A DNA stretch of 64,000 nt, taken from NCBI GenBank assembly GCA_026545225.1, contig CM048849.1:52336836-52400835 (forward strand), read 5' to 3'. Each line of letters begins with the position of its first letter. The first letter of the stretch is position 1. The notes beneath the pieces are model-generated. The model was not told the origin of the DNA. It worked only from the letters and a program-made list of their open reading frames with translations, and did no database searches. Below, piece after piece: positions 6,742 through 61,809 of the stretch. The position numbers and the translations under genes are program-made. Source of the DNA: Cornus controversa. Lineage: Eukaryota; Streptophyta; Magnoliopsida; Cornales; Cornaceae.

Positions 6742-9700
6742 ATGAGCAAATGGAGCAGCCTCCTTAAAAAATTTCAAGAGTTGAACAAATACAGGTTGAT
6801 GATATGTCTTTTATATGAGATTCTGGCTTGCGTATTTAAATATGGCAACAACCCGTTAATGAACGTGATGAGTTTCGACGAAATTATATCAAAAGAGGAC
6901 CTTATCAACCAAATCTCCCAATGTTTCCTTCCACCTAAGATAAAACTCAATCTCATCGATTTCTAAGTAGTTAGTATAAAAATTTACTTGGCTTGAGTAT
7001 TCTCCTGAGAAAGATAAAGAATATTGTTTTCCATGCTTTCTCTCTGAAACTAATCCACCATCCCGTCTTGTTTTTACTGTCGAGGGGTTCAATAGTTGGA
7101 AAAAGGGTTAATGATGGAGCTAGGTGCATTTTTTTGCAACATGTGGGGGATCCTAATTCATCACACTTGTGTGTCGTAACATATTCAGATGCTTTCATGA
7201 ATCTTTTGCAACATATCGACAGAGTGTTGAATGTACAATCAAGAGATGTGGTGGAGAAGAATCGACTGCGCCTCAAGATAACAATTGAGAGTGTTCGGTG
7301 GCTTGCATTCCAAACATGTGCATTTAGAGGTCATGATGAATCTGTTGAATATTTGAATCGTGGCAACTTTATTGAATTCATAAAGCATTCAACAACATTA
7401 AATGACAAGGTTGCTGAAGTTGTCTTAGATAATGCTCCAAAAAAATGCAAAGTACATCTCGCCAATGGTTCAAAAAGAAGTTTTGCACATTTTTGGCAAT
7501 AGGGTGAGTTGTAAGATTTGTGAAGAAGTTGGGGATGGAAAATTTTGTATTTTGATTGATGAAGCACAAGATGTGTCTAATACAGAGCAAATGACTATTG
7601 TCTTGAGATTTGTTGATAAGAATGGTTTGCTTAAAGAATATTTTTTTGGAGTTGTAGGCGTTAAAGACACCACTTCCTTAACTCTAAAAAAAGAAATATC
7701 AGATATCCTTACTCTTTATGATTTCCAAATTGATAACATGTGAGGCCAAGGGTATGATGGAACGAGCAATATGCGTGGGGGCATAGAATGGATTACAAGC
7801 ATTATTTTTTAAAGAATGTTTAAATGCATATTATGTACATTGCTTTGCTCACCAACTACAACTAACATTAGTTGCAGCATCCAAAGATGTGCAAGATAAA
7901 TGGTTATTATTTTCCAAGTTGAATTCCATTGTCAATCTTGTCACTGCTTCTCCTAAGTATCATAGTGAGTTACAATCAGCTTAAGTGATTTTATCTTCTA
8001 ATAAGTTAGCTACTGGTGAACTTGAGAGTGGTAAAGGGGTTAATCAAATTAAAAATTTGCAATGAGCAGGTGCCACTTGATGGAGCTCTCATTATGGTTC
8101 TGTTAGTAGCTTGATAGAGTTATTTGGTCCATCTCGTGTAATTCTTAAAAATCTTTCAAAGAATGGACCAACTAGTTCTATACGTGGGAAGCAAAAAGTG
8201 CTCATCTTGCAATGCTATCATTTGAATTTGTATTTATCTTGCAATTGTTGTGTGATATGATGAAAATTACTGATTTACTTTTGTTTCAAGTGGATGTTTG
8301 TCGTTACTTTTCTACACTTCGTACAAAAATAATAAAACCTGCAAAAACTTTACTAAAAATTGTATAGTAGTAAGTAAGGTCGAACCACTCTCAAGTGAGA
8401 TTCCGAATGAGCTGAAATTCACACACTAATTTATGGAATAAAAATTATTTTTTTAAAAATATTTTTTATTTTGGAATTATAATGAATAAATAAACTATAA
8501 TAATAAAATAAATCTCAAGGGAAGGAAATCCACCACCACGAATCCACATAAATAAAATTTTTACTATTCTTATATGATTTTGCTCCAATAAACAATACAC
8601 TTCACCAATTCAATTACAACTTGAAAAGATGAAGGAAAATATGACATAAAAAGCAAATTTGATTATATATGAGAGAGACATTTCTTTACTTAATCTGATG
8701 CACATTGCTAGGTAAACAGAGGTAGGCATTATTCGAATTATCATTATTTGGCAAATACGAAGAATCCTTCCTCCAATTTTAGAAAATAAAAATCCATAAT
8801 AGAAGAGTAGAAGAATGCTCTTGGGAGAAAAAATTAGACAAGAAAATAAAATAACTTACTTATACTTCAGCTATAGTGGCTTCATCACTCCGTTGAGAAG
8901 GATGCTTACGCTTGCATATTAACAGAAAACAAACAAATAGAAATGAAACTACTATTCTTGATTGAATCAATAAAATAATTACACTATTTTTTTCTATAAT
9001 TTCTCTACAATTTTCTAACTCCCCTCACCATCCCCTAAAATCCCCTATTTATAGAGTTAGAGGGGAATGGTTTAGGTGAAAAAAATTTAAAATACAAAAT
9101 TTAAAATACAAAATTCAAAATACAAAATTTAAAATACAAAATTTTGAATTTAAATATCTAAAATTTGATCTCCATATCTTTAATTTCAATTCTGGACTGC
9201 AGACGTGGCCGTGTAAAAATTATTTTGCAAAGTTTTGAACTTAAGACCTCTTATAGAGCAGATTGCATAGAATACCATCTCCCCTACAATTCTTCTTATG
9301 GTAATCTTTGGCTATATATATCATTTTTAGCCCTCTTTTGCTATTTTTCTTCTTATTTGAAAATCAACCCCTATAAAACATAAAATGCAAAGATAAGAAC
9401 ATTTAAATAAAATAAAAGATGAATTAAAAACTTGTTTTAGGATATAAAATAGCAAATTTTGTACACTTATCAATTACTGATTTACTTTTGTCAAGCATTA
9501 CAACGAAAAACTCAAGACATTTTAAATGTTATGAACCTTGTTTCAAGTATGAATGTACTTCTTTAGGAATTGAGAGAGAATGGGTGGCATACTTTCTTTC
9601 AAAATGTGGAAGCATTTTGTAAAGAACATGAGATTATATTACCTGATATGAGTGCTTCTTATATGGTGGGTACAGGTCGTTCTTGTCAACAAAATGATAA

Positions 9701-16897: not shown

Positions 16898-17110
16898 GAG
16901 CAATGCTACATGTCATGAAATAATTTCATGAATTTGTATCATGAATGATGTGGCAGGTAACGTGGAGAGTTAGTATTGGTGGGATTCCCCCCATACACAT
17001 AGTCCCATGATATTATCATTGAATCCTACCAATACTAACTCTCCACGTTACCTGCCACATCATTCATGATACAAATTCATGAAATTATTTCATGACGTTT
17101 AGCATTTCTC
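16898..17110. mobile_element. MULE-type MITE, 213 bp
   Basis: Full copy of the 2050-2261 family, starting GAGCAATGCTACATGTCATG and ending TTTAGCATTTCTC. It is flanked by TAAGCTGAAG (16888-16897, 17111-17120), a perfect 10-bp repeat. The two arms pair over about 90 bp. Confidence 0.9.
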
Positions 17111-17894: not shown

Positions 17895-19598
17895 TCAAAG
17901 CTGAGGAAGAACCCAAATAGGAGAAGGTCGAATCTCCTTGAGGTCGAAGAGGTAGATGCTGTCATCTTCCAAGTTAAAGACCCCCAAATCGTAACATCCC
18001 CAAGAGTTTTCAATATATTCAGCAGTGAAGTAAATAGAATTCCTTCTCAACCCGGGAAAATCATGGGCGGATACAGAAGCAGAGTGATTTTGGCCAATAA
18101 ACAATACACGATCGCCCAAGCTGGGCACATATACCCACTTATTCTCAACAAAGTCCCGCTTATACACATCAAATGTAGCGGTCATAATGTTTTCCTTGTC
18201 ATCAGGATGATCACGGAGGTACCTAACAACCATCAACAGTTCCCCTGAAGATTCCACCAAATACCTAGTGGAAACAGAAGAAATTCTCACCTTCCGTTGG
18301 CGATAGTCCATTGTTGGTTGCACAGTTGGAGGCACAGTAGAAATTGCAAGACTTCTCTTTGGAGAAGAAGGGTTTGTGAGATCCCAAGATTCTACAGAAC
18401 CATGCCTGCACAAAGCATAAAAAAGTTTCTTCTTGCTGAAATACAAGAGATCAACATAGGAGTCCGTTATCGGCGAATCTAGTGCAGTCCATGAAGTGTC
18501 CCCAATTCTGCAGAAGGCAAGTCGGTTTGGGTGTTCTTTGCCTTGGATGGCCATAACTGTGCAACACTGAGAGTACTCTTGATCAACATTGCTCTTGTTG
18601 TTGGAAACAAATGGGGTTGGGGCTGAGGACATAACAAGCTTCCTAAAGAAATTCTCACTCAGATTTTTAGCCGATATGGGCGACATCTGTTTCCATATCA
18701 TGAACTCTGTAACAACGGGGGAGGAGGAATCAATGTGCATGCCATTGAGACGTCGACTTGAGATAAGCGGAGGGAGGGTTTCGATAGGAGGGAGGGGAAG
18801 GTAGGGCATAGAGGAGTCAATAAAGGGATTGTAGAGATAGAGGGAGCAATTGTGGGAGTGAATAAAGGCAAGCCAGCCATGAGAGGAACCAATGCAAATG
18901 GCTTCCTCAGGCGAAAGGTGATCCGTATGCCATGGCATCCACAGATTCTTCTTCTTCTTCAAAAGCTTATTCTCTGCCGCGTTCAAGAAGTGATAGTAAT
19001 CATTGTCCTCTGGCTCCACCTCCGATTTACGTTTAACCTTGAATTTTGTGGATATCAAAGTTGTGCCCACCGACCCAAGAACTGTGCTTCTGCAGTGGCG
19101 ACAGTAAGTAGCATCCCTTTTACGCTTATAATAACCGCCTTCGCTGTCAGCAACCAAACTAGGAGGTACCATCAGCCACGGGGAGCCAGAGCCAGACAAA
19201 TAAGTAGTTCCCCCTTGTCGTGTTGTTTCTGTTTCTTCTTGGTCAAGTAATGTTGCTTCTGCTTCTGCTTCTGCTTCTGCTGCAGATGTTTGAAGAGAAG
19301 AAGAAAAACAACGTTGCATGGACGACGAAAAGATGAGTGCAGGTTTTTTGAAAACTACTCTGCCTTCCAGGAGTAAACTGTTGTTTTGGGTTTTGGAAAC
19401 GGACAATCGTGATATGGTTGTACAAGGGGGTTGTATTCTTTGAAGATGCAGAGAAAAGTCTGATGATCGGACGGAAGAGAGTGAACGAACAGCAGCTTCA
19501 CAAGAGGGTTTGTGAAATCTCACTCTGGATGGCCATATTTTCAGCACAGATCGGTGGGAAAATAACATCGAATGGGCTAAAGGGGAGTAACTAACCAT
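17895..19598 (-). CDS. DUF295 (KIB1-4 beta-propeller) protein, organelle-targeted type
   Basis: Single-exon gene for a 567-aa protein of the plant DUF295 family. There is no F-box. The N terminus is instead a long Arg/Ser-rich presequence, with RCFSS at residues 96-100, as in the mitochondrial DUF295 subgroup. An Ala-Glu repeat (about 106-115) comes from a GCTTCT microsatellite. The propeller domain is complete: CIGSSHGWLAF (235-245), YLYNPFID, LLYFSKKKLFYAL, SWDLTNPSSPKR, YLVESSGELLMVVRY, FDVYKRDFVENKW, SLGDRVLFIGQNHS and NSIYFTAEY. The first ATG gives the longest product; Met11 is an alternative start. The gene is intact, unlike 590-2686, and diverged from its neighbour at 24936-26531. Molecular function in this subgroup is unknown; organelle location is inferred. 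Confidence 0.9.
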   Translation of the reverse strand: MVSYSPLAHSMLFSHRSVLKIWPSRVRFHKPSCEAAVRSLSSVRSSDFSLHLQRIQPPCTTISRLSVSKTQNNSLLLEGRVVFKKPALIFSSSMQRCFSSSLQTSAAEAEAEAEATLLDQEETETTRQGGTTYLSGSGSPWLMVPPSLVADSEGGYYKRKRDATYCRHCRSTVLGSVGTTLISTKFKVKRKSEVEPEDNDYYHFLNAAENKLLKKKKNLWMPWHTDHLSPEEAICIGSSHGWLAFIHSHNCSLYLYNPFIDSSMPYLPLPPIETLPPLISSRRLNGMHIDSSSPVVTEFMIWKQMSPISAKNLSENFFRKLVMSSAPTPFVSNNKSNVDQEYSQCCTVMAIQGKEHPNRLAFCRIGDTSWTALDSPITDSYVDLLYFSKKKLFYALCRHGSVESWDLTNPSSPKRSLAISTVPPTVQPTMDYRQRKVRISSVSTRYLVESSGELLMVVRYLRDHPDDKENIMTATFDVYKRDFVENKWVYVPSLGDRVLFIGQNHSASVSAHDFPGLRRNSIYFTAEYIENSWGCYDLGVFNLEDDSIYLFDLKEIRPSPIWVLPQL

Positions 19599-24333: not shown

Positions 24334-24935
24334 CCTGTAAACTTGAACTGCACATTTGTTTTTATTTACCAAATACCCTCAAATAAAAGTAAATCCAAAT
24401 CAGCAGTACTAGACAATAAAAAATAAATGATAGATTCTGGTCAATATTACCAAACTAGCTATAATAAAGATTAAATGGAACCAGGAAGATGCCCACAACT
24501 AACTTATCAAGTTTCATCTTTAATACACCCATCAGTATTAACAAATTGAAATAAAATATATAGATGCAATTCTCATATATACATATACTTTCATAACTTT
24601 CATCGTCATTCTTTTCTTAATTTCATATGAATGGAGTTGGTCACATGAATTCTATTGAATTAAGTGAGAATTTATCAAAAATATTTCACATAAATTTTAC
24701 AAATTGAAAACGTACTATATGCACTATCAAATTTAAACCGGTGATAATTTAAACAAATTCGCACAAAAAAGTACCCTAATGGGCAATTCCATAAAGTTAA
24801 GCTCGGGAAAAGATGAACATAACAACAAAATGTGTGTATATATATATATATATATATATCAAACTAGTATGCAGTGCGAGAATGAGAAGAAACTTATTAC
24901 CTCAGAAGGGAATCAAAAATACAGAAGGGTGTCGC

Positions 24936-26531
24936 TTATAGTGCGGAATAATTGTTGGGGGCGACCCAAACCGGCTGCGATACTTCTACTGGCGGTAGTT
25001 TACTGCCATTCAAAGTGAGTGGATGATAAGGTTTGACGCTGTTATCTTTCAAGTGAAAGATGCCATTATCGTGACCTGTATAGTTGCTTATGGCTAATGG
25101 TTGATAATCGTCTGTGAAGTAGATGGAATTCTCACTTAGCTCTGGATAGTCACGAGTTGAGAGAGAGAATGAATGATTACAACCCACAAACAATGCCCGA
25201 TCACCTAGGCATTCCACAAACTCCCACTTATTTTGATCGAAATTCAACTTATAAACGTCAAATCTCAATGACTGATGAAACGGTCCAACGTCATCATTTT
25301 CTGCATTAACGAAATCCACTCGTTCCTTGGTATAAGGATCAGGGGGATCGTATTCCTGGACTCCGCAGGGAGTGCCATCGCCATTATAATCTGAACCATA
25401 AAACCTGAAAACTAACAAAAGATCCCCTGAGGATTCCACAAGATAAGTTAAGTAACTGCAATATGTATTAGAACTCAAAAATTGTTTTGTTCTCTCCAGG
25501 TCCAGAGGAGAGGAAGAAGGATTGATCATTTCACGTTTTGGAGAAGAAGGATCGCTCAGATCCCAAGCTTCAATGTGTTTTGGGCCAGCCATGGTATAAA
25601 AGCGTTGATCCTTGCTGAAATACATGATTTCATCGTAATAAGCATTGTCTGATTTATCCAAGATATGCCACCTCTCCTCCCCGAGTTTACAGAAATATAT
25701 TTCTTCGCGATCGATAACCATTACAGTGCAGTTGTCGTCGTGGTCGCTGTTGCAGGACTTTTGGGGAGAAGAAGAACGTGGCAGTGATGGTGCTGATGAC
25801 ATAGCAACCTTTTGTATGAAATGCTTACTCTCCTTATCAGCGTATCTATTTTCATAATCTGAATACTCACTCGCACTCGCACTCGCACTCGTCCTCATGT
25901 CGAGCAATATAAAGTCTTTGACAAGGGAAGAGGTGGGGGAGAGGTGATATGATTTTTGGGCCCGGGCACATCGTATATCAGGGAAGGTTTCGTAGGGAGG
26001 GAGAGGGACATAGGGTAGATGAGAAGACTGTATTAGTGGATTGAAGAGGTAGGGGCAGCAACTACGAGAGTGGACAAAGGCAAGCCAGCCATGAGAGGAG
26101 CCAACACAGACCGCATCATCCGGCGTAAGAAGCTCCTTCTGCCATGGTATACTGAGTTTCTTCTTGACCCTGATTTTTGTTTGCTCCGCAGGACTGAAGA
26201 ACTGAAAATAATCATGGTGGTCCTCAGATTCTGATTCACCAAACTTGTTAGGATCAACATTAACCCTAGGACTAGGACTAGGACTAGGACTAGGAGGTAC
26301 AAACATCAATGCGGACGATAGTGATTGAGGAGGAGGGCGGACAGGCAAAGAAGTTACTTTGTCAACTAAATTTTCTTGACGAGAAGAAAAAAAACAACGA
26401 ACACCAACACCACAAGAGAAGTTGTGAAACTTGGTCAGAGTCGAACGATTGAACCATGGCTTCAGCACAGACGTTCGGTGGCAATACATGTACAGCATCA
26501 TCCTATCAGCAAAAGGTGAGAAAGTAGGCAT
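24936..26531 (-). CDS. DUF295 (KIB1-4 beta-propeller) protein, organelle-targeted type
   Basis: Single-exon gene for a 531-aa protein. The presequence is Arg/Ser-rich with RCFFSS at 45-50, followed by a Pro-Ser dipeptide run (81-88) encoded by an ACTAGG repeat. Domain motifs: CVGSSHGWLAF (142-152), YLFNPLIQSS, IMYFSKDQRFYTM, AWDLSDPSSPKRE, YLVESSGDLLLVFRF, FDVYKLNFDQNKW, CLGDRALFVGCNHS and NSIYFTDDY. There is no F-box, so it is probably not an SCF subunit; mitochondrial import is inferred from the presequence. It is the intact partner of the pseudogene at 590-2686, and flanking DNA on both sides is shared with that copy (24420-24930 and 26535-26710). Confidence 0.92.
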   Translation of the reverse strand: MPTFSPFADRMMLYMYCHRTSVLKPWFNRSTLTKFHNFSCGVGVRCFFSSRQENLVDKVTSLPVRPPPQSLSSALMFVPPSPSPSPSPRVNVDPNKFGESESEDHHDYFQFFSPAEQTKIRVKKKLSIPWQKELLTPDDAVCVGSSHGWLAFVHSRSCCPYLFNPLIQSSHLPYVPLPPYETFPDIRCARAQKSYHLSPTSSLVKDFILLDMRTSASASASEYSDYENRYADKESKHFIQKVAMSSAPSLPRSSSPQKSCNSDHDDNCTVMVIDREEIYFCKLGEERWHILDKSDNAYYDEIMYFSKDQRFYTMAGPKHIEAWDLSDPSSPKREMINPSSSPLDLERTKQFLSSNTYCSYLTYLVESSGDLLLVFRFYGSDYNGDGTPCGVQEYDPPDPYTKERVDFVNAENDDVGPFHQSLRFDVYKLNFDQNKWEFVECLGDRALFVGCNHSFSLSTRDYPELSENSIYFTDDYQPLAISNYTGHDNGIFHLKDNSVKPYHPLTLNGSKLPPVEVSQPVWVAPNNYSAL

Positions 26532-26710
26532 CTCTTCATCAACTCTCTTAAAAATACTTACTGTTGTGCCTCTATGCTATATTATGTTTCTCTCGCTTTT
26601 CACACAAATTTTCTGGTGGCTCTTAGGAGCAGATTAGGCTGGGCCATATTGGCCCTAGACTTGTTGAGGCCCGGGACAAATTACCTAGGCCCCAAGTAAT
26701 GCTTTATTTG

Positions 26711-28080
26711 ATGACAATCATATTTCTTTGGTTTGGAATTTGAAGGAGACTAAAAAAGACAAGGATACTAAATGTTACAGTGAAGTAAAGAGAATGGGAG
26801 ACCGGTGAGATCAATACTACCGTACGTTTTATTTTTGATCAAGTGATAGGGCGTGAAACTGCAAGAGCCAGAGCCACAAGGTAAATGGGTTTTAATCGAA
26901 GGCTATCGTATAAGAAGCGTGGACTTACATGAAGCTTTTCTCCACCTAAATACATTGGTATACGATTATACTTTCGGAAAATATATGTGTGTATATATAT
27001 ACACACATATTTTTTTAATACAGTCGTACACGATTAATTCACTTAAACATAAGGGTCATAAATACTTGCAGCAGGATAGCTTTTCTTTTTCTTTATGTAT
27101 CTGTACGTGAAATTGAGGCCTCCACCTTTCACTTTTTAGTTTTTACATGCTTTTCATTTTAAGAAACTTATAAATTTAGTAAATTAAAATTACCCAATTA
27201 TCTAACACTTAATGCCAAGTAGCAGAGCGATCGATATGACAGAGAAAGAGAAAAGATCTTGTGATGGGTGGATTTAAAGATCCTTTTCATTTATAATTTC
27301 ATGATATTTATAGGAGTAGGAATTCAAATCATTTTAAAACTTGAATTTCCTTTTTAATAGCTAACTTTTCTATTTAAGAAATTTTAATTTCTGAGTTATA
27401 AATTTATTTTTGATTTGAGTTTTTTAGCCTTGAGGTGGGGCGACTAGGCCCTTAACAATTAACAATCTAATCTATTTGGACTTTCTGCTGGTACATAGAT
27501 TTAAGCCGATGTAGACCTAGTCCGTTTTTTGCACCAGTCAGCCCATTGGAGCGGGTAATAATTTAACCCCTATAATAGAGTAAATTACCACTGCAACAAA
27601 TAAGTTTATTTGTGACAGAAAAAAGCTGTCTCTAATACTTGATATTCTATTCTATAACTAAAAAGTTTTAGTTACAAATCAGCCTAAATTTTGGATGCAT
27701 AAATTATAAAAATTAGTTATATATTGATTTATGTAAGATATCATGTGTGGGTACTGCATCCTGATATAAATATGCTAGCATTACCCATTTCATTCGTCAA
27801 TGACACACCTAAGTTAATAAGAGGTCATACACAAATTTTACATTCAAAAAGAGGGAAAAAAAAAAAATTTGTAACCTTATGTTAAACGAGATATAAGCCA
27901 AGGATCTTTTAATTCTAAGTTACTCTGATTAAATTCAGCTTTGTTGAGAGAGTGTCTAAAAAGGACCAGCCACAATGAAGCTAAAATAACCAAGTACAAT
28001 CAAACTGAAACACTCTGCTTTGAAGACTCCTTGTTTTTAGAGTACCCCATGGGCTTGTAGATTGCTGAGTATTTTACACA
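26711..28080. other. Intergenic DNA with one dispersed repeat
   Basis: 27290-27590 resembles 49870-50185 (shared GCTAACTTTT, TTTAAGCCGA/CTCAAGCCGA, TTTTTTGTACCAGT-like and CCATTGGA stretches, ending near CCTACAATAG). The class of this repeat is not clear. Otherwise no gene is seen. Confidence 0.5.
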
Positions 28081-30555: not shown

Positions 30556-32974
30556 TCAAGATGACCCAAACTCCTGGATGCTAAACTTATCCATCTCTGC
30601 CCTGAAAGCAGGCATGGCAGGTTCTTGGATGTACACTAAAACCTTGAACCCATCCTTTTTCCCCTCATTTGCTGAAGAATAAGGCAAGAAAAAACAAGGC
30701 TCAACGCTCCCAAGAAGGTGTCTTGAGAGCGGTAAAACAGTTACAGGTCCTCCCCAACCAAAGTTCACTGTTGAATGGCCTAAGTGTCTCCAATCAGTGA
30801 ATCCACTCACACCTTTTCCAGCAGTGATCCCCTTTTCATAATTTAGTTCCTGAAAGTCGATGAACGAGTGCACATACTCATCAGTAGCGTTGCCTTTGCT
30901 CTTTTTGATCAGATCGGCTGTTACCCAAATGGGTTGCTCAACCAAGTCTTTGGCACTGAGTTGAACATACAATGCTACACATCCATTGCCCCAGTAGCCT
31001 ACTGGTAGTGGGGGTTTTGCTAACTTTCTTATATTGATAGAGTATGCAAATTTCACCTTCTCATGACCTGGAACCCCAGAGGCTTTAACCCTGTTCCATC
31101 AATAAAAATTCCCAAGTCAACAATCTAATCCAGTACACATGTCATATCACAAATAAGCTTCCAATTTTTCCTAAGTTAACAAGTACTCCTATTGCATAAG
31201 CAAAAGAAAACGGAAAAATCATAAACATTTTTGTATATTGAATTAAATTAAAACCCTTCTATAAGAAAATTTGTAACCATCAAAAGGAGTGCGCCATTCC
31301 ATTGAATTCAACTTTACTCTTGACATGTGAACGGCTATACTACACCTAGTGAAATTTAAAAGATCTATTGCCCCAAATGAGGCTATGGAAAACTAACTAC
31401 AGAGGTATCAGTGCATCCTCTTAGTATGGACTATGGGACCAATTTCATGTTTTATGAATTGTACTTCCAGAATTTTCTCTCTTCATGAGATTGTTGCCAC
31501 TATTTCAAACAGCCTCTTCAGCTACATTGGATTTTTGTTATCAAGTCCTATATAAATCACGATGCAACAATTGCAATTGCCAAAAGATCCCCAAGGGATG
31601 TTCAATTCTTCTTTTGAAACATGCAGTAGAGTCTTTTGCACTTAATTTAAAAAGTGTTCTCCATAGACAAATTTTTTCAGGAGAAAATATGAATCATACA
31701 GAAGCAGAATAAATCATAACGTAATAAAATTTATTTCATTCTCTAACACAATAAAAGAGTTAAAATATCATTTTTCTTTCCTTTCAACAATTATTCAATG
31801 AAGTCATCCAAACAATAGAAAAATGTTAATATCTTTTTCTTTCTTTTTCCTCCAAACTAAAATTATTATCTTTTTGTTCTTATTCCTTTACAGTTACACT
31901 AACCAAATGTAAAGTCACTGTTAATAATCTTTAAAGAGTTATGATATTGGGATTGAATATTATTTTTCATCCTTAAAATATTGCAAAACGAAGGATAATG
32001 TGGAAGCCTTGTTGGTTTAAAATAATTCTACAGATTGACAAGAAAATAATATTAAAAGACTTAAAACACACTTGTGATCTTCTCATTTATAAGTGAAACA
32101 AGTTAGAATCTAGAATAAACCATTTTTTTGACAGGTGAATCATTTGCACACAACACTTAAATAATGTGACATACCTTGCTCGCCATATGTAAGCGCCCAA
32201 AGCTTCGAAGGTCGTAAAGCTCGAACCAGACCGTTCGCGCAGTAACCCCTTGAACCGGTCCAACCACTCGTCCCTCACCTGAAAGCACTCCCTGACAACC
32301 GATCCACTCGACTGCGAGTACGGCGAAAAACCCTTATCCAAGCACAAAAACTCCTGAACCGGAAACTCTACCCTAGGCGGCTCTCTCGGACCAAGCAAAC
32401 TCGTCCGATTCCAAACCGGCTCGACCGATAACCGAGTCGCCCCACGAGCTAACTCAGCCATAGCATTGAAAAACTGAGTCGCACCGAGTCCGTCTGACGT
32501 TGAGTGGTGTACCGCAGCACCAAGACAAAACCCGCCACAAGTAAACATCGTGACTTGCAAAATCAAGGGATTAACAAGCCCTTCATCGGAATTCGGGTTG
32601 GGCACAAACTGTTCGACAAAATGCTCAGCCGGGTCGTCTAGGTAGTTAACTGACTCCAACGAGCAGTCTACAGCTGCGCAAATGACGGGCACTCCTTTGC
32701 CAACGGCGCAATATAGCTCGAGCCGGTCGTCCCCGTGACGACGTCGTAGGGTACCGGCGAAAGGGTAGTAGTAGACGAGGGCATCGGAGAGTGCAGCAGT
32801 GATTACCTTAAAGGGGTCGGCCTGGTGGTTGGTCCTAACGTACGCGCGGACGTAACGGAAAGTAACACGGAGGTTATGGTCGTTGTCGAGGTGGGACAGA
32901 GAGAGGACATGGTCGTGGTTGAAGGGTGTTCTAGAGGGATAAACAACGGTGGTTTCCAATAGCTTGACTTCCAT
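30556..32974 (-). CDS. BAHD-family acyl-CoA-dependent acyltransferase
   Basis: Two exons, 32175-32974 and 30556-31090, join across a 1084-bp GT-AG intron within an Arg codon, giving 444 aa, the normal BAHD length. BAHD enzymes move an acyl group from acyl-CoA to an alcohol or amine, usually in the cytosol. The catalytic HxxxD motif is HSTSD (157-161) within AAVHHSTSDG. The structural motif is NFGWG (376-380) where most members have DFGWG. Other typical blocks are YYPFAGTLRRR, PVWNRTSLLGPREPPRVEF and GFTDWRHLGHST. The sequence resembles the plant set annotated as 3'-N-debenzoyl-2'-deoxytaxol N-benzoyltransferase-like, but the substrate cannot be read from sequence. ATG at 32974 with a TATA box 73 bp upstream. 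Confidence 0.93.
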
Positions 32975-37670: not shown

Positions 37671-40600
37671 ATGGCAGAAACTAAGAAGGGAGCTTCTTCA
37701 TCTGTCAGTTCAAAGGAAAAAGATTCACTTCTGGGTATTCTCTTAATAGCCCTTAGTGTTTCTAGGTCCTTTGCTATGGAAATAATATAGATAATAAAAG
37801 CATGGAGGTCATTCACATTACTGTCTCACAGTGGCATTGCCAAATTTTGAGATAGTTGGCAATGTTAGAGTGCTACTGTTCAGATGGAATGCCTAGAAAA
37901 GACAGGGAGCAGCAAGGACAATATTCAAGGAAGTAAGGAGAAAAAATAGCTGAAAGCACAAATGAAACATATAGCTAAAAAGTAGATTCCAGTAATATGT
38001 AAAGTCAATCTTCTTTATTAGTTGCTTATTGTGTTCATATGCTTCAGTGTAAGATTCAAATTTTCTTCGTCTTAGTCATTTCTCAAGTAGAAGAAAATCA
38101 ACTAATGAGTTTCTACATATGCTTGTAGCAGATATGGAAATTGGGAAGGACTTTCTTAGCTCCTGGAAATCAATGTCTGTGGCAGAAAATGACGCCATGG
38201 ATTTTGACTTTGACACTGTTGCCAAGGGAAAGAAAAAGACATTCAATTTTGACAAATTGTAAGTGCCAGTGAAAACCGTGAATTATTTTTAATTTTTATG
38301 TAAAATAATTAAGGTCATTGCTTGGTTCAATGGAAATTGGAAAATGCTCGAGCTATTGCTGGTTTGGGTTTTGGAGTAACCACTTTGTGCAAATAATTCT
38401 GAAACTTTATCTATATCCACTCCCTCTCTCCCAGCAATGCGGTGTGCAAACACTGGATATTATAAAGGTGATATATCATCTGTATGACCACGATTTTGTC
38501 AGAAGAAGTAACACTGTAATTCTTTTGGTTAAAGTCTCAGCTTTCATTGCAACAACTACCTGAATTTTGTGGTTGTTCCTTATCATCATTTCCTTTTGCA
38601 CAATTTTACATATTGTACACTGTTATGCCCTTATTAAATGACGTGCTACATGCTGATCACCAGTTTGATTTGTTATTAAATCAAACCTTTCATGCATAGG
38701 GATGACTTTGGAACAAAACTAATTTTCTGCTACAACAGTTATATTGATTAATGCATAACTAATCATTGCCAAATAGCACTCACGAAGCAATAACTTTTCT
38801 AGGGATATGGATTTCGGTCTTGATGGTGATTTTGACAAGATATCATCATTCAAAGTAGACATGTCTGATCTTGATATCTCTTCCCCGTTGAAAAAAACTG
38901 GAAAGGAAAGATCGAAAGACGAATCTGCCGCTGGAAATCATCAAGGCAAACAAGATCGTATAACTTTCTCATTTGATTTTAATGAGTAAGTGTATAAGTT
39001 CTTTTGAGGCTCCTTTGAATCTTTATTTAGTAATTATGCAGTTTGGAATTATGTACAGTCTATATCTTAATGAACTTACAATCTAATTTCGGTATTCCAT
39101 ATCCGACTCTTTTTTTTGGTCAATTCAGGTTGGATAGTTTTGGTTTTGAACCAAGCCACCTAATGAAAGAAGGTAAAATATCTAAAGAAAACCAAGATAA
39201 CAAAGGGGCTTCAAATAGAAGTGAGTTCCAAGGTTCTGGAATCCACCTGAGTGAAGATATTGGTGCAATAGAACATGGTGTCTCCTCAAAGATTCCAGTA
39301 CCAGGAGGTGTGAGCACTTCAAAGATTGAGACTCTGGCTGCAGTTCATGGGGATCTTGACCCCATAAGTGAGAATTTCCCTTCGAAATCAGTGACACATG
39401 ACAATTTCCCTTTGAAATCAGTAACACATGACAATTGCCCTCTAAAATCTGCAACTGTTGGAAGTCTAGTTGCATCACAGGGAGCAAGAACTTTCCCAGA
39501 GAAAACATATGCTACCAGGACACAAGAAAAAGACCAAGAAAATCACCAATCAGATGAAACTCCCTCAGAACCATATGTTCTGGACAAGATCCAGGATCTT
39601 TCTGTCCAGTCTGCATCCGAGTACGAGTCAACTCGAGATACTGCTTCAGAATTAGAGGGAGAAGTTGATTCTCGGGTCACAAAAGTGAGTACCAGCTCAG
39701 ATGGAGAACAAAATGTTAATGGCAAATTGATAGGTGGTTTGGGATCTAAACATGAAAAATCACAGTTGGAGAATCCGACTCAACAACATCTGGCAAGATC
39801 ACTGAGCAATGATGGTGAAAGGAACAGATTTGGGAATGATGATCATGCTCCAACAGGCAGTATAGTTAATACTGAACCAGCTCAAGCTGATTCAGTTTTT
39901 GAAGATACTTCCATCATCTCAAGGGAATCACTGCATGACACAAAGAACAACAGAGAAGAGCAGAATTCAACTTCAAATCTCCTTTTTGCCCCATTGATCT
40001 GGTCAGTTGATCAGTTACTTTGCTCTATTGATAAAGTTTTGTAGACAAGCAATGTTTGAAACAAATTATGGTGATGGGGTCAGATTGTAATTTATTATTA
40101 TTATTATTATTTTCCAGTAAGTTGGACTAGAATATATAGATTATCTGAATTCAAAAATTATACAGATGCATCTGTAACTGTTTTTAAGTCATAACAGTCA
40201 CTATAGAACCATAATGCATGTTTGAAATATGGAAGCATTTTTTTAATCAGACTAATATTAGATGGAATTTAATGAACAGAGGGCATAGTGTGTTCAGTTG
40301 GTGTGACTGTAAATTCTGGTGAAGAACTTTGATAAACCCATGGCATGTGAATTTGTTTATTTGATGCAGTGGAACCACTGTCAATAAGTTGATGTCAGTG
40401 AAAGAAGAAGAAACTGGTATTATCCGGTCAAAGTTTTTCAAGAAATCAGATGAAACTAAATCCCTGCTGCAGCAGGCATCATCAACTCAGACAAAACATA
40501 TGTTGTTTGACAGCAAAAGATATGGCGTGCAACTAAATCCTATAGATGAAAGAAGGTGAGCTATTCTTTTCATAGTGACTTAGTTAGTGTAAATGGTGCA

Positions 40601-43284
40601 ATGTCCCTTATAGTTTTCAACAGAGAGGGTATTGATGCTAAAGATGGACAAAGTGGGAGGAACTTGGCTGGTATTCCGTGGTCACATTCTGGAGAACTAA
40701 ACAAAGATGAACCTGTTCATTCTGGAAGTGGAAATAGTATTAAAGGTCTCAAGAGTATCAGGTGAGGCTTTTGCACTTGGAATTTGCATTCTATACAGAG
40801 TTTTACACTTTTTGTTAGACTTTTCTTGCTCCACAAATATATGGGATTGGATCATGGAAGTCTAGAAATAACACAAAGCTGCATTGTTAGTGTTCTAATG
40901 ACAGTGTGTCATATAATCTCCAGCATAGAGTGCTTCAATGCTGATGGTGCACAAAACAGGATTAAGTTGATTGGTTCTTCTAGGCTACATGACGGAGAGG
41001 TAGCAAACGGAGAACCTGTTTCACATGAAAGTAAAAAGAACATAAAAGATCTTGATACTTTCAGGTTAGACATTTATACTTGAGATTTCCATTCTATACC
41101 CAATTCTTTACATTGTTGACTGAAGGTAAACTTCTTCACTTGAGACGACTAGATCAGTCAAATATCATTGAGATGATTAGATCAGTCAAATATCATACTT
41201 GTCAATCTGAATGGCCTCTCAGGCCCTTAAGTAAAGCACAAAATGTTTTTAGGTTTTGGATAGTGATGTTTGTAAGAAATGCCATTCTGGGGGATGACAC
41301 CTGTTGTTATCTGGAGTTTCATCATTACTGTTATTCTTTTTCTTCGCAGTTCTTGTGCTCATCTTTGAGCTAATCATTTGATATTCTCATTCATAATTAT
41401 AATTTTCTAGATATTTATTTCTGCATTGAACATGATATTTCATTGTAAATATGACAAGTACATCTGTTATGTTGTCTGCTAGAAATAGTCATATATTTCC
41501 GAATTGATTCATGTGACCTTTGGAAGAACATTGTATGGTATACATAAGCTTCAGGACCTGTTTTGATGCAGCTCTGAGTTGGATCCTTCCAGCTCAATTG
41601 GGAAGACAAATAAATCTATCACGCAGAATCGTATAAATCCCAGACTTCAGGTTTCTAGCATGGTGTCTGTTAAGAACTTGAATAAAGTTTGTGATGAAGG
41701 GAATAGAATCTCTCCTTTAAAAGTTGATAGGAGGACACCTAATCTCTCAAGCTTGAAGATTTCAAGGTAGTATGCTAATTTTGCTGTTGATTCATCTTCT
41801 TTGGTGCATATTTATTTGTATAGATTTTGTGGGCCATCTTTCTAATGATCATGTCTCCTAATATAGTACTTTAGGAACAAGTCATGATCCAAGTTCTACA
41901 AGTCAGAAAGAAATTAAATCCTTGAAAAACGCAGAGAATAACGTGGACTTACAAGGGAACAGAGCTTCCAAGATGGTCCATTCTGTTGGCTGCGGGAACC
42001 AAACACCACCGACCCCGTCTTTGAAACGGAAAGCGCTTGAGGTTAATTTCTCCTTTAAAACTGAAGTATTTTTGCTTTTCCCAAAGCGGAGTTTTGTTTA
42101 TAACAGGATAACAGATATGGTAATAATATTATATGAAGTTATATAAAGTTGGTATTAAATACATAGCAAAAATCATTTGATACATAGCTATTGTATATAA
42201 CAATCTATTGCGCAGGCACCAAATGCAGATATTCTGACCTTAAATCCCTCGAAACGTCTCTCAGAGTCACCTTCCGGAAGCAGGTCCCATCATAAAATTG
42301 GTTATTTATTCGGTTAAAATTATTTTTTTTGGGATGTTAACTGCACTTATATATGTTCTCTCTTTGAAATATTCAGAAATTTTAGAGAACCCTCAGAAAG
42401 AGTTGTTGGCAAGCAGGTATCTTACTGAAGAAGTTTGTGTCCATTTTCAGAATGGAGAACTCTAGAAGGATGAAGTTTGACATTCAGAAAATTATTATTA
42501 TCGCTGTTCAATCTTTTTTAATTTTTTACATCTAGGTCTACAACCCTGAGAATCGGACTCATGGTGACACAGAAAATGTTTTCAATAATTGCCAGACCTC
42601 TACAGTTGATATTTCACCAAAGATGAACATGACAGAACTAGAGATCCCTTCAGTAATAGAAGATGACGGGAATGTTGAAAAGGCAGAGGCCTGTGCAAAG
42701 GAGCTTGAAGATGTAAGTATGGACTCTATTTGCTGTTAAGTATGAGTACTCCATAAAGCAAATAATAGTTACACTTGAGCTCAAAACTTGTCAAGTGGCT
42801 AGAGAATCGTGAATCTGAATATATAACTCAGAAAAAACTATAACACCTAAAATGAATATTGCTAGTGTGAGGGTTATCACTGTAATTCTTTTAACCATCT
42901 ATAATAATTTGATAGAATGAGTTCCATTGGTCCTTCCAAAAATTTATGCATTCAATTTATCCACGGAGGTGGTATTAAAAAAAAAAATAACACTTGACAT
43001 CATGGGGAGGATGCTATTGTTTCTGCAGATTTGCAACATGCTGAAAAAGAAACATGAGGAGGCAAAAGAAATTTTCGTTCGAGCTATTGTAAACAACAAT
43101 AATCTTCTGATGCTCAACCATCCAATCTATGAAGAGAAGATATCCTTATAAACTATCTTTGCTATTACATGTTGCTTTATTTGGCAAATTTTATATGTGA
43201 AGTTGGATATTCCTTCATTATGAAAACATCCGCATGGTTAAGAAATTTGCTTCCCGGCTGATGTCCAAGGAGATTCACACGTGA
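37671..43284 (+). CDS. Homolog of uncharacterised protein At4g18490
   Basis: Fourteen coding exons: 37671-37734, 38132-38258, 38803-38985, 39129-40001, 40370-40555, 40624-40761, 40924-41064, 41572-41766, 41867-42041, 42216-42283, 42377-42416, 42536-42712, 43029-43139, 43228-43284. They join in one frame of 2535 bases (844 aa plus stop). The N terminus is Asp/Phe-rich ([36 protein letters not shown]). The middle is long, polar and probably disordered (Ser, Asn, Glu, Lys). The C-terminal 75 residues look helical and conserved: [34 protein letters not shown], then [18 protein letters not shown]. Family function is unknown to me; the match to At4g18490 is from memory. The last intron looks U12-type and must be removed to reach the proper C terminus. 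Confidence 0.85.
43140..43227 (+). other. Probable U12-type AT-AC intron (88 bp)
   Basis: The intron starts ATATCCTT, the exact U12 donor consensus, and ends AC. TTCCTTCAT at 43210-43218 matches the U12 branch consensus TTCCTTRAY at eight of nine positions. The branch A at 43217 lies 10 nt from the 3' end, within the usual 10-16 nt. Removal joins ...PIYEEK to [11 protein letters not shown] in frame. Retention gives a stop three codons later. Confidence 0.85.
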
Positions 43285-46200
43285 ACATGAGCAGCTATAA
43301 CAGCAATTTTTCATATAAAGGTACCCTACCCCTCCCTCTCTCAAAGTGTCTGCATCTGTGCATGTTAATGAGAAGTTTTCTTAAAATTCTTGATTATGTA
43401 TTTCAGTATTTTTGCTTCATTTCAGTTGATGATATCTTATTCTATTATGCAATTTTCAGGGATAGCCATCTGTTCTATTTTCTGTTATATTCTGGAAAAT
43501 AGAAATATCTCATTTTCTCCCTTTTCTATTTTAAACATTTGAACTATGAATAGGATGAATGTCAAAAATGTGATGTCCATGTATTGGATTCCCTTTAATG
43601 CTATAAACTATTGGCCTTTGCATGTTCTTTTATCCTGTTTTAATTGCACGGAGTCCATGAAAGCTTCTCATGCATCAGATTTCTCTAATGAAATTATCAA
43701 GTTTGTTATTACTAAGTTGAACTTCAATTAGATTTTCTAGATGGGAGAACGTATCCAACATAGTTACATATATTTAGTTCGGTTATGATCAAATTAAGAT
43801 TTAGGAACACAAACACCCCCCCCCCCCCCCCCCCCCCCCCCCGTCTTCACTTGGCCTTAAGTTTTCTGCCCATTCTTTTAGTTTTTTCTTCTGTACTATG
43901 TATGCAGAACAAGGATGCTTGCTAAATCAGGTGAAGATCAAACTAATCGAAGTTCCCTTCAGGAGTTTCCTCCCAATTTCTGTTCAAAAGAAGCCACACT
44001 TTCACAAGTCCTCACGCAGATTCATACTTTCAGGTTATATCGTAAGTTCAGAAAGAGCTTTCCCAGTTATATTAGTAACTGTCATAAGTGTTTTCTAGTT
44101 TTTCATATTGGATTTGCCATGGGCATAGATTGGTCTTCCATTTGCTGCTGTGCACCAGTAATCTACCCCCAGAAGAAGCATTTGAGCTCCACATTCTACC
44201 TAGTCGGGTGCCGGAGATATGAACAGACTCCGAAAAATAAACATTTCTGCATTAGTGGATCAGATAGTCCATTATTGTCATGCCATGGAAAAGCACATTT
44301 TATCATAACATGTAATATTGAGTATTAAGACATGAATATCAGGCAACATGGTGACGCCATGCACCATCATATGTGTACACACGATTATATACACTCCTTT
44401 AAGTGTCATGCCAGCACTTTTATACAATTTTTCTTATGCTGGTGATAGGAAATAAGTAACTAATCTGCACTCTCCTTTTAAGTGTCTTATGTCAACATTT
44501 TTATGCAAATTGCAAACTTTTTAAGATGCCTAATAAAGGATGATAGAAAGTACAGGTAAATTATTCTAGCCAATTTATCATCAAGTGATGTAGAGCGATG
44601 CAATCTATAAAAGCAAAAACAAAAACCTCAAGGAATTAGAAAAGTAAAAAACTAAAAAGGAAAATTTGGTAAATTGGTTCAATTTTTAAGATGCGACTCA
44701 CTTGAAACCTTTTGAAATTAACTTCTTGTTTGAGTCAATTATAATTTTGTTTTATGATTTTTTATTAGTTTACTATTAATTTAATTATATTTAATGTTAC
44801 CCTGCTGTTTAGGATTAGGATTCAGTTCAGTAATCGAATGAAGAATGAGAATCCCATACCAAGTAATCAGAGATTCAGAATATGAAGTTGAAGCTGTTCG
44901 GCAAGATCAGGAATGCTATCTCGAAAGCAATGCGGATTCAACTTCTAATGTTTGGTTTATTGATTATCGCACATTCTGCGGGTTTTGTTTGGTTTAGAGT
45001 ACTATCTAATCCCAACATCTTTCATATCCTTATGTGGGTTGAGTCTCAACGGTGGTGGTTATGAAAAATTGACGATAACTGGATTTGAGTCGTATTTCAG
45101 TAAATAGCAATGTTATCAACCTATCATGATTTTTGACAGTGGTTTTATGGTAATCAGGGGTGCAACTCGGACAAGTTAGAGGCTCAACTCAAGATATGAA
45201 ATTTTTAATTCTAATCCGATCTAATCTGACCTTCAATTCAAGCTAATCAACACAAATTCAACTTGTTATAAAATCTTTGAACTTGGATTTAAGATTGAGT
45301 TTGTAATTTGGGTTTGAACTTCAGGTTGTAGTGTAAGGGTGAGATATAGAATTGAGATCTGCTAGGGTGATTAAAAATTTGTTAGAAACCATTACACAGT
45401 TTTTGCAACTATGAGTGTCGTCAACTGCAACACTTGAGAGGGGATAGAGATATGGTAGAATATATATCTGGAGAAAGATAAATTGGTGCGTTTGTCTTGA
45501 AATGACATGATACTTTGTGGGCGGCACATATTCTCATGCATATAATTAACAATTATAAATATACAAAGCATCATAAAAGTACAAACAAATTCTTATAAAT
45601 TAATTTTTCAAAGTATTAATATATAATAAATTAAAATTTAAACAGAAGAAGCTGAAAAGAAAAGAGTGATCATAATTTAAAATATTTAATATTTTTAAAA
45701 TTAAAAATACATACAAAAAATAAAATTAAAATTCGGGTTTAAATTGGATTCGAGTGGGTGACTCCTCAACCTAAACTCAATTCTAATTAAGTTTGGTTTG
45801 AATATTTTCGAACCAACCTAAAACCCTATGTTGCACAAGCTCGTGAAAGATAGAGTTAGACTTGGGTTGGATTCAAGTTGGTTCTTCCAAATACTCCAAA
45901 TGATAAGCTGTCCCTTTTAAGATAAAATAACTCTTATGTAAAATTGTTACTTCAATGGTTGAAATAGAGTTGCAATAGCTTTCCTTTATTTAAAATTTCA
46001 TAAATGTTTAGAATTCTACCTTAAGTGGGATGTAAATTTGACTCCTCTCAATACAAATACATTTATGTTAAAGCTTTTAATAAAAAATGTTTGGTTTTCA
46101 TCTAATCAGATTTTGACCAAATTTAAAATAGGAGTCAAAATCAGTTATATTTCAAATCTGCATTGTTTAATTTTAGAAGAATATATAAATAGATTTTTTT

Positions 46201-59694: not shown

Positions 59695-59955
59695 ATGGCC
59701 AAGCCAACTATCTTCAGAGTTTCAATACTGATCCTATTCATTTTTTTATCCCATGTAATCAATTCAAGAGCAGAAAGTTATCGTGGGGCTAAAACTATTC
59801 ATAAAAGGTTTGGCAGTGAACATATCTTTCGTGAATTAGGCTTCGACTTGTCAAAGATGGAACTTAGTAACAGAAGGTCAATGGTGGATCCAGAAAGAGT
59901 TGCACCCGGAGGACCAGATCCTAAACATCACCAGCAAACTCCGACCACCGCCTAG
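59695..59955 (+). CDS. CLE-family signalling peptide precursor, 86 aa
   Basis: Single-exon precursor with a signal peptide at about residues 1-26 (hydrophobic ILILFIFLSHVI), a variable region, and the CLE motif RVAPGGPDPKHH at 68-79, followed by a seven-residue tail. It keeps Arg1, Pro4, Gly6, Pro7, Asp8, Pro9, His11 and His12. It differs from the Arabidopsis CLE5/6 peptide pattern (RVSPGGPDPQHH) mainly at positions 3 and 10. The mature peptide would act outside the cell through CLV1/BAM-type receptor kinases. It lies 8.1 kb from the other CLE gene on the same strand and is probably an old tandem relative, although the precursors outside the motif hardly match. Confidence 0.95.
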   Translation: MAKPTIFRVSILILFIFLSHVINSRAESYRGAKTIHKRFGSEHIFRELGFDLSKMELSNRRSMVDPERVAPGGPDPKHHQQTPTTA

Positions 59956-60262: not shown

Positions 60263-60952
60263 ATGAACTTCATAGTATGGATGACAGTCCAAGAAAAGCT
60301 AGCCACTCTGGATAGCCCTTCTTTGGCCTCACTTCACATTCCTAATGCTTGCTCTCTTTGCCTATCTGACAAAGAAAGTCATAACCACCTTTTCTTCCAA
60401 TGTTCCTACTCTTCACAAATTTGGCATCACTTCACTTCTTTACGTAAGATCACCATCTCATCTGACATCATCACATGGAATGAGCTCATTAACTTGCTCT
60501 CCAACTCTTGGGATGGTAGGTAGGTTTTTCTATCCTAGAAATTAGCAATGGCAGGATGTGTATATGGCATTTGGAAAGAGAGAAACAATAAGGCATTCAG
60601 GAACAAGAGCTCAAGTCCCCAAGTTCTGATCCACAACCTCATCAGACTTAGGCTGAGCAACATAGAAGTGAAGAATTGCAGAAGTAGCAGAATTTTTGCT
60701 GACATGTGGTCACTTTCAAGTTCTGTTGTCAAGCCGCCTAGAAAACCTCCTGACTAACTCTTCACTATGCTGCTTCTTCGGCAGAATCTGCTGTTAGTTT
60801 CCATGGCATCATGTAGGCCGAACATTCAATGCATAGCACACAGTGCTTAAGTTGTTTAGCCAGGTCTTTTCTTCAAGAAGGCTGGCTTAGGTATTTGTAC
60901 AAACATCTTATACTCAATACAATCTTATCTTATCTTATCATGAAAAAAAAAA
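60263..60952 (+). mobile_element. LINE (L1-type) 3' fragment
   Basis: 60263-60523 encodes the zf-RVT zinc-binding block of plant LINEs (CSLCLSDKESHNHLFFQC then SYSSQIWHH). After two stops near 60520-60540, 60560-60757 gives GIWKERNNKAFRNK and the tail of the ORF2 product. The 3' end has TTATC repeats then a run of ten A bases (60943-60952). It is 5'-truncated and dead; I could not find the left border. Confidence 0.8.
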
Positions 60953-61809
60953 CAGCTTGATATTGTGTTTATTACTTTCAGTTTCAGATAAAAAAATATT
61001 CATGCAACAGCAAATCATCTTTTTTATGTTATGTCTATTACTTTTCCTTTCCATTGTTCTGCTATGCCAGAGAAGAATATAATGCCCTAGCTAGGCATGC
61101 AGCTTTCTAGCAAAAGTACATGTCCTGCATGCATTCTTAGATGCTGATTGATCATTATCTGAAAAGTCCCAAATTCGATTTGACTCTTCTTTCTTACTTT
61201 AAGAACTCCTGGCATAAATTCATCTGCTTAAATGCATACTAGTTTTATCACTATCAATGGATACCATCCAGGCATCCATAGAGTTCCTGTAGTCTCGCTA
61301 AACATTTGACATTCTTGCCATTACCAACCTGACAGAACATCTCCTTTCAAAGATGGTCTACACAGGCAAGCAAGCAGAGCAATACAAAGGTCCCCATTTT
61401 AACTTTGTTTCCCAGAAATTAGATTTTCAAAGTATATATATATCCTTCACAACTCTAGCCTAGAAAGAATGTTTAACCTTGCACCAACCAGTAAAGGTTC
61501 CTTGATTAATCCCTACTTAGAAATAAAAGAGTGGTTTTTCTTTTCAAATGTCAGAGGACTTGAGAGTAGCTTTGTACTCTATTTCTAAACATTCATAATA
61601 TAAATGGGAATTGTTTTTCCTTTTTTGTGGTTTTCCAATGAAGCTAATTTTAGTAATTATTTGTCCATCATGAAGAGAAGCACACCAGACCCCTTCTGTT
61701 ATCTATCACTTAGTCCTCAATCCCAGGAATTGATTGTCACTTTTCTCATCAAACACAGATTTTTAGCAATAATGCACTTGATGTTTATCCATGAAATCAT
61801 TAATTTAAT
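60953..61809. other. Intergenic, no gene seen
   Basis: No coding motif found. Confidence 0.5.

What the first reader, a model, noticed from the sequence alone, without database searches (positions are those of the whole stretch)
43140..43227. U12-type AT-AC intron that sets the C terminus of the At4g18490-like gene
The donor ATATCCTT, the terminal AC, a near-consensus branch TTCCTTCAT and the 10-nt branch-to-acceptor distance are all visible. Splicing restores a conserved-looking helical end ([18 protein letters not shown]). Without it the protein stops after ISL. AT-AC introns are a small minority of plant introns, and standard GT-AG gene models will miss this exon.
Basis: partly seen in the sequence, partly recalled or inferred. 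Interest (0 to 1): 0.7.

Follow-up and report, generated by a model that had tools for sequence, protein, structure and literature searches.

The report
AT-AC intron in a synaptonemal-complex gene
The last coding intron of a plant gene for a chromosome-pairing protein (SCEP3) looks like one of the rare introns cut out by the minor spliceosome, and without that cut the protein should lose the end of a domain used in holding paired chromosomes together; the intron type is known, its place in this gene is the interesting part.

Summary
At 43140-43227 (+) lies an 88-nt, phase-0 AT-AC sequence with donor ATATCCTT, branch-like TTCCTTCAT and 10 nt from branch A to the terminal C. In a hand-made model it follows 12 coding exons joined by 11 GT-AG introns. 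The gene is no longer "unknown": At4g18490 is SCEP3, a synaptonemal-complex central-element protein. Two printed Arabidopsis antibody peptides match the window protein at 13 of 19 and 15 of 20 residues. Arabidopsis SCEP3 (803 aa, cDNA-confirmed) has 28 residues after the second peptide; the spliced window protein has 30, the retained form 15. This supports the splice independently. The motif alone is weaker: a look-alike with a better branch site lies at 61440-61516, with an in-phase open frame but no coding signal. Exon 13 supplies 18 of the last 70 residues; in Arabidopsis the last 70 form a helical domain that binds ZYP1 in yeast two-hybrid (disputed in vitro) and overlaps a self-associating coil. 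Not shown: RNA junctions, or whether relatives share the AT-AC intron. Verdict: a new example of a known intron class in an important meiotic gene.

The parts
43140..43227 (+). candidate U12-type AT-AC intron, 88 nt, phase 0, last coding intron
   Evidence: sequence, gene model, motif scan, enumeration of alternative junctions
43140..43147 (+). donor ATATCCTT, exact match to the U12 5' splice-site consensus
   Evidence: consensus as printed in PMC2831892 (passage)
43210..43218 (+). branch-like TTCCTTCAT, one mismatch to TTCCTTRAY (C at the upstream purine); candidate branch A 43217, 10 nt before the terminal C
   Evidence: consensus as printed in PMC5932401 (passage)
43226..43227 (+). terminal AC; the only AC ending 9-20 nt after the candidate branch A
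   Evidence: list of AC positions
43228..43284 (+). coding exon 13: [18 protein letters not shown] + TGA
   Evidence: composition test inconclusive
43029..43139 (+). coding exon 12: [37 protein letters not shown], holds the match to Arabidopsis SCEP3 756-775
43149..43151 (+). in-frame TAA met if the intron is retained
38134..43284 (+). coding span of the SCEP3 (At4g18490) orthologue, 13 coding exons, 822 aa; phenylalanine-rich N terminus, C-terminal end with the peptide match
   Evidence: gene model by hand; peptide matches

Best explanation
43140-43227 is a genuine U12-type AT-AC intron, the last coding intron of the window's SCEP3 orthologue. Inferred mechanism (established for the class, not shown here): U11 pairs with ATATCCTT, U12 with TTCCTTCAT, and the minor spliceosome (U4atac/U6atac/U5) joins ...YEEK to [18 protein letters not shown]. 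[quoted passage not shown] If retained, translation stops after ISL and 18 of the last 70 residues are missing. Shown: the sequence elements, the frame, the lack of a good GT-AG alternative, and the fit to the Arabidopsis protein length. Inferred: splicing in vivo, spliceosome class, effect of retention.
For: Exact donor, near-consensus branch, AC at 10 nt, no polypyrimidine tract by eye, phase-0 junction. Position +5 is C; the U2-type AT-AC introns of sodium-channel genes have G there (PMC2831892, passage). Exon 12 up to the TAA has only two GT dinucleotides. Of 1898 enumerated junctions (GT-AG, GC-AG, AT-AC, AT-AG; introns 60-1200 nt) 2 GT-AG and 4 GC-AG keep the ...KEIHT end, and both GT-AG ones delete the stretch whose Arabidopsis counterpart (VVDNNK) is in the printed peptide. 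SCEP3 orthology: peptides 69-87 (13 of 19), 756-775 (15 of 20) and 61-75 (9 of 15 ungapped); for these three 0 of 2000 shuffles scored as high. Residues from the 756-775 peptide to the C terminus: Arabidopsis 28, window spliced 30, retained 15. Exon-13 peptide: of 648 stop-free intron 18-mers none equals both its helical moment and its helix propensity.
Against: No RNA and no homologous genomic sequence was available. A better-scoring motif pair at 61440-61516 shows that such pairs, even with an in-phase open frame around them, can arise where nothing else points to a gene. The branch motif has C where plants favour A, and 10 nt is just under the 11-13 nt optimum given in PMC3584512. Phase 0 is the rarer minor-intron phase (average 22%), and minor introns in many plants lean to the 5' end while this is the last coding intron (PMC10639083). 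Codon usage of exon 13 is no help: 1.85 bits in frame against 4.62 in the +2 frame; 4.9% of 648 stop-free intron 54-mers and 13.8% of 1062 downstream 54-mers score as high. The exon-13 moment is reached by 7.5% of shuffles of its own residues. GC-AG 43112/43202 leaves 29 residues after the peptide and AT-AG 43140/43242 leaves 25, so length alone does not exclude them.
Confidence: 0.92

Rival explanations
1. The intron is real but regulated: a fraction of transcripts keeps it and makes an 807-aa protein without the last 18 residues, or is removed by nonsense-mediated decay, so that SCEP3 dose follows minor-spliceosome capacity. (This is a refinement of the best explanation, not exclusive of it.)
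For: In-frame TAA at 43149-43151. Branch site with C at the upstream purine, where A favours splicing in plants (PMC5932401, passage). [quoted passage not shown] A possible 3'-UTR intron (AAG|GTACCC at 43321 to TATGCAG at 43907, picked by eye from 8 GT and 19 YAG sites listed) would put the retained stop 169 nt, and the normal stop 36 nt, before a junction.
Against: No expression data. In Arabidopsis floral buds only one of seven predicted SCEP3 splice variants was detected (PMC12711579, section 11 read); whether those variants differ at this intron is not stated there. The 3'-UTR intron is a guess from motifs.
Confidence: 0.15
2. Another junction (GT-AG, GC-AG or an AT-AG using the same donor) makes the C terminus and the AC at 43227 is not the acceptor.
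For: Junctions that keep the ...KEIHT end exist: 2 GT-AG, 4 GC-AG and 10 AT-AG of those enumerated; GC-AG 43112/43202 leaves 29 residues and AT-AG 43140/43242 leaves 25 after the peptide.
Against: Both GT-AG and three of the four GC-AG junctions remove part of the stretch matching the printed Arabidopsis peptide; the remaining GC donor (GAT|GCTCAA) and its acceptor (TTATATGTGAAG) look far from consensus. AT-AG combinations are disfavoured (PMC3584512, passage), and 43242 lies 25 nt after the candidate branch A.
Confidence: 0.04
3. The motifs are chance and the protein ends with ISL at 43148.
For: Probable chance look-alike at 61440-61516.
Against: Expectation 1.0e-4 for an in-frame hit in the stretch where exon 12 must end; Arabidopsis SCEP3 extends 28 residues past the peptide, the ISL form only 15.
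Confidence: 0.03

Closest known systems
U12-type (minor) AT-AC spliceosomal introns of plants
   Same: Donor ATATCCTT, TTCCTTRAY-like branch, short branch-to-AC distance, A+T-rich, no pyrimidine tract; one AT-AC intron among GT-AG introns. AT-AC makes up 0.092% of plant splice-site pairs, and 64 from A. thaliana were followed across plants, in PMC7072748 (passages).
   Different: Phase 0 and last coding position, both less usual for minor introns; C at the upstream purine of the branch motif.
CBP20 AT-AC U12 intron of land plants (PMC5932401, passages)
   Same: AT-AC U12 intron that separates a C-terminal segment from the rest of the protein; the shortest is 76 nt.
   Different: CBP20's intron is present in all ten plant species compared there and splits off a less conserved tail; here it falls within the C-terminal domain, and conservation of the intron is untested.
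SCEP3/ATC21 (AT4G18490) of Arabidopsis; ZSL of Brassica napus
   Same: Phenylalanine-rich N terminus, long middle, conserved C terminus; 801 or 803 aa in Arabidopsis and a fragment ending at 811 in B. napus, against 822 aa here; peptide matches.
   Different: The passages that I read do not say what kind of intron lies at this position; 16 exons in Arabidopsis against 13 coding exons modelled here (UTR exons not modelled).

Membership tests
U12-type AT-AC intron | Highly conserved 5' splice site ATATCCTT | tested here: met
   8 of 8 bases
U12-type AT-AC intron | Branch site TTCCTTRAY close to the 3' splice site | tested here: met
   8 of 9 positions; A-to-end distance 10 nt, just short of the 11-13 nt optimum in PMC3584512
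U12-type AT-AC intron | AT and AC termini with C at +5 | tested here: met
   +5 criterion from a passage of PMC2831892
U12-type AT-AC intron | No polypyrimidine tract before the 3' splice site | tested here: met
   judged by eye on GAAGTTGGATATTCCTTCATTATGAAAAC; not scored
U12-type AT-AC intron | Removed by the minor spliceosome in vivo | not testable with these tools
   no RNA data; species not identified
SCEP3 (At4g18490) orthologue | Conserved N terminus with phenylalanine repeats and FKMD-type site | tested here: met
   window aa 55-73 [19 protein letters not shown] against printed 69-87, 13 of 19, 0 of 2000 shuffles as good; ITFSFDF against FAFSYDF, 4 of 7, a weak match that 70 of 2000 shuffles reach
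SCEP3 (At4g18490) orthologue | Conserved C-terminal helical domain | tested here: met
   window aa 773-792 against printed 756-775, 15 of 20, 0 of 2000 shuffles as good; only 20 residues of the domain could be compared
SCEP3 (At4g18490) orthologue | Unconserved middle | tested here: inconclusive
   printed peptide 689-703 has no convincing match (720 of 2000 shuffles as good), as expected if only the ends are conserved
SCEP3 (At4g18490) orthologue | Required for synapsis and crossover interference | not testable with these tools
   reported for Arabidopsis in PMC12283363 and PMC12711579 (abstract and passages)

The most novel reading that the evidence does not exclude
The minor spliceosome gates the plant synaptonemal complex: a conserved AT-AC intron inside the C-terminal interaction domain of SCEP3 makes full-length SCEP3 depend on AT-AC splicing capacity in meiocytes, so that retention yields a truncated protein or none and shifts synapsis and crossover interference.
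Probability: 0.12. Interest if true: 0.68.

Novelty: new member of a known kind. Interest (0 to 1): 0.36.

Why it matters
SCEP3 is needed for synapsis, crossover assurance and crossover interference in Arabidopsis (abstracts), and it was among the genes differentiated between diploid and autotetraploid Arabidopsis lyrata and A. arenosa (passage). If the last segment of its interaction domain depends on an AT-AC splice, annotation and cloning of SCEP3 in other plants can lose the C terminus, and minor-spliceosome mutants become a direct test of a link between rare-intron splicing and meiosis.

Tried and rejected
Relatives of the C-terminal 68 residues: 7 pattern matches in viral contigs and 75 in genome contigs, none confirmed by tblastn; these collections are viral or prokaryotic, so this says nothing about plants. 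Pfam: no family above its cut-off for the 822-aa protein (best MSG, E 0.059) or its last 68 residues (CARD 0.031, bVLRF1 0.13). PDB sequences: 4 weak hits, best E 0.15, not used. Rfam: 0 matches at gathering score in the window. Codon usage of exon 13: inconclusive; exon 12, when held out, scores only 3.84 bits over 37 codons, so the test has little power. Search of the paper library for six C-terminal strings: 1 paper, the known peptide only.

On rechecking, 46 codons (from 61302) are open before it and join in phase to 23 open codons after it. The codon scores are 0.19 and -7.54 bits, 46% of 962 equally long stop-free stretches between 44300 and 58000 score as high as the upstream part, and Pfam has no match. 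I still read it as chance but less firmly, and lowered the main confidence from 0.93 to 0.92.

On what is in print: papers holding At4g18490 (4) and SCEP3 (5; two groups sharing PMC12283363; one, PMC12585055, is off-topic and was not opened). 'U12' has 0 occurrences in PMC12711579, PMC12283363, PMC4254747, PMC8665957 and PMC12342985. PMC13170185 has 0 for 'intron' and 'splic'. PMC11706510 was searched for At4g18490 alone. U12 + intron + meiosis + synaptonemal + minor spliceosome gave 2 animal papers (listing only); a looser search gave 9, of which I saw passages of two (PMC12114641, PMC8280824). A search for DROL1 with AT-AC gave 3 papers, none opened for it. Supplements and most subscription papers were not seen, so a list of U12 introns may already hold this one.

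PMC8665957, a tea review, gives At4g18490 as CHLI1; that looks like a slip and was set aside. The one further scan of genome contigs that the tool allowed was not used.

Full report
WHAT IS THERE. The window carries, on the + strand from 38134 to 43284, a gene that I modelled by hand as 13 coding exons. Eleven introns are GT-AG, and the twelfth, 43140-43227, is AT-AC. The joined coding sequence is 2469 nt and gives 822 residues. The AT-AC intron is 88 nt, 73.9% A+T and phase 0. Its donor is ATATCCTT, its branch-like element TTCCTTCAT at 43210-43218, and the candidate branch A at 43217 lies 10 nt before the terminal C. If it stays in, the frame meets TAA at 43149-43151 and the protein ends ...YEEKISL (807 aa); if it is cut out the protein ends ...[22 protein letters not shown].

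IS IT MORE THAN CHANCE? A scan for an exact ATATCCTT, a branch motif with at most one mismatch and AC 9-20 nt later (intron 60-300 nt) found two places on the + strand and none on the - strand; simulated sequence of the same dinucleotide composition gives 0.163 per strand (65 hits in 400 simulations; 0.32 with limits of 40-400 nt, 120 simulations). With one donor mismatch allowed the window has 8 and 3 hits against 6.1 simulated per strand, so the relaxed motif says nothing. The second strict place, 61440-61516, has a perfect branch motif (TTCCTTGAT, 11 nt). Its donor runs out of a TA repeat. An open stretch of 46 codons before it joins in phase to 23 open codons after it, but these do not score as coding (0.19 and -7.54 bits; 46% of 962 equally long stop-free stretches elsewhere reach the first score), and Pfam has no match. 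I take it as a probable chance look-alike. It warns that the motif pair, even with a frame, does not prove an intron. What is improbable is an in-frame pair in the 123 nt where exon 12 has to end: 3.1e-4, or 1.0e-4 with the frame.

ALTERNATIVES. Exon 12 up to the TAA holds two GT dinucleotides, TTC|GTTCGA and ATT|GTAAAC. I enumerated 1898 junctions with introns of 60-1200 nt (128 GT-AG, 317 GC-AG, 551 AT-AC, 902 AT-AG). Of these, 23 keep the ...KEIHT end: 2 GT-AG, 4 GC-AG, 7 AT-AC and 10 AT-AG. Both GT-AG and three of the four GC-AG ones cut away residues that match the Arabidopsis peptide below. The fourth GC-AG (43112/43202) leaves 29 residues and is not excluded by length, but its donor GAT|GCTCAA is very poor by eye. 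Among the AT-starting junctions that keep the end, only those from 43140 have a U12 donor, and of the acceptors only the AC at 43227 lies 9-20 nt after the candidate branch A. An AT-AG junction 43140/43242 would leave 25 residues, but lies 25 nt from the branch A and is of a disfavoured type.

WHICH GENE. The B. napus homologue is ZSL (PMC13170185, passages). The papers print antibody peptides of Arabidopsis SCEP3. Residues 69-87 match window residues 55-73 at 13 of 19, and residues 756-775 match window residues 773-792 at 15 of 20. Residues 61-75 match at 9 of 15 without gaps. For these three, 0 of 2000 shuffles scored as high. Residues 689-703 do not match convincingly (720 of 2000 shuffles as good), in line with the printed statement that only the ends of SCEP3 are conserved; the short motif FAFSYDF matches weakly (70 of 2000 shuffles as good). 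Orthology is thus tested on printed sequence and not from memory.

AN INDEPENDENT CHECK OF THE SPLICE. Arabidopsis SCEP3 is 803 aa in the model that Feng et al. say was confirmed on flower-bud cDNA, so 28 residues follow the peptide 756-775. Seear et al. give 801 aa; their peptide 61-75 overlaps Feng's 69-87 with numbers shifted by two, so the difference seems to lie before that point and the C-terminal distance to be the same (my inference, if there is no other difference). The window protein has 30 residues after the same peptide if the AT-AC intron is spliced and 15 if it is retained. The spliced form fits.

WHAT IT DOES. In Arabidopsis the last 70 residues (734-803) form a helical domain by AlphaFold2, and bind the ZYP1 N terminus in yeast two-hybrid. 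Seear et al. found that the C-terminal coil (715-801) self-associates into 1-2 MDa species but saw no robust ZYP1 complex in vitro; the ZYP1 contact is thus disputed. In the window, exon 13 supplies 18 of the last 70 residues. These have a helical hydrophobic moment of 0.482 and good helix propensity. Of 648 stop-free intron 18-mers none equals both values, but 7.5% of shuffles of the same residues reach the moment, so the helix claim is moderate. The codon-usage score of exon 13 is positive yet higher in the +2 frame and does not help. I expect the minor spliceosome to complete this domain; a retained transcript would give a protein short of its last 18 residues, or be lost to decay. A possible 3'-UTR intron (43321-43907) would make decay of the retained form likely (169 nt against 36 nt from stop to junction), but it rests on motifs picked by eye.

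COMPARED WITH WHAT IS KNOWN. Donor, branch, termini, +5 C and lack of a pyrimidine tract meet the description of U12-type AT-AC introns in PMC2831892, PMC3584512 and PMC5932401 (passages). AT-AC pairs are 0.092% of plant splice-site pairs (PMC7072748, passages). At positions aligned to 64 A. thaliana AT-AC introns, AT-AC was kept in 967 sequences, other non-canonical pairs stood in 93 and GT-AG in 157. AT-AC introns are thus usually kept among plants, and this one may be old; that is inference. Two traits are less usual: phase 0 (average 22% of minor introns) and the last coding position (112 of 290 streptophytes show 5'-biased minor introns). The C at the upstream purine of the branch site and the 10-nt spacing suggest less than optimal splicing.

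VERDICT. Observation confirmed, interpretation supported. It is a new member of a known kind, in a gene whose role was described in 2025. The open and testable point is whether the AT-AC intron is shared by SCEP3 genes of other plants and whether SCEP3 output follows minor-spliceosome capacity in meiosis.

Noticed in passing
40624-40761 and 40924-41064: Exons 5 and 6 of the SCEP3 gene encode similar 46- and 47-residue segments (score 51, 0 of 1000 shuffles as high; the only one of 78 exon pairs with 5 or fewer of 1000): a likely tandem exon duplication. Exons 2-7 all have lengths divisible by three and phase 2 at both ends, so each could be skipped without a frame shift.
   Followed up: partly
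61440-61516: A second AT-AC/U12-like motif set with a perfect branch site and an in-phase open frame around it (46 + 23 codons) but no coding signal and no Pfam match; most likely chance, worth an RNA check.
   Followed up: yes
43816-43842: A run of 27 C downstream of the SCEP3 stop codon.
   Followed up: no
59695-59955: 86-aa ORF with a hydrophobic N-terminal stretch and a C-terminal RVAPGGPDPKHH (translation), which looks like a CLE-type signalling peptide (motif recalled; Pfam gave no hit at E 0.1).
   Followed up: partly
17895-19598 (-), 24936-26531 (-) and 400-2917: Two ORFs with a KIB1-4 beta-propeller. DNA of 24720-26715 is 75-82% identical in pieces to 400-2917, so this part of the window holds a local duplication; 400-2917 was not itself tested for the domain.
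   Followed up: partly
30556-31056 and 32087-32974 (-): Two exon-like halves of a Transferase-family (PF02458) gene, matching profile positions 278-432 and 1-265 of 434.
   Followed up: no
2049-2261, 3935-4146, 16898-17110: About 213-bp elements in direct and inverted copies (82-96% alike, partly self-complementary), like a MITE family (that listing was cut short).
   Followed up: no
60263-60523 and 6993-7502: Remnants of mobile elements: zf-RVT, and DUF4371 as in hAT-type transposases (the hAT link is recalled).
   Followed up: no
literature, PMC4254747: In sacred lotus a gene similar to At4g18490 (NNU_020674) is listed as a putative target of a phased siRNA (passage).
   Followed up: no
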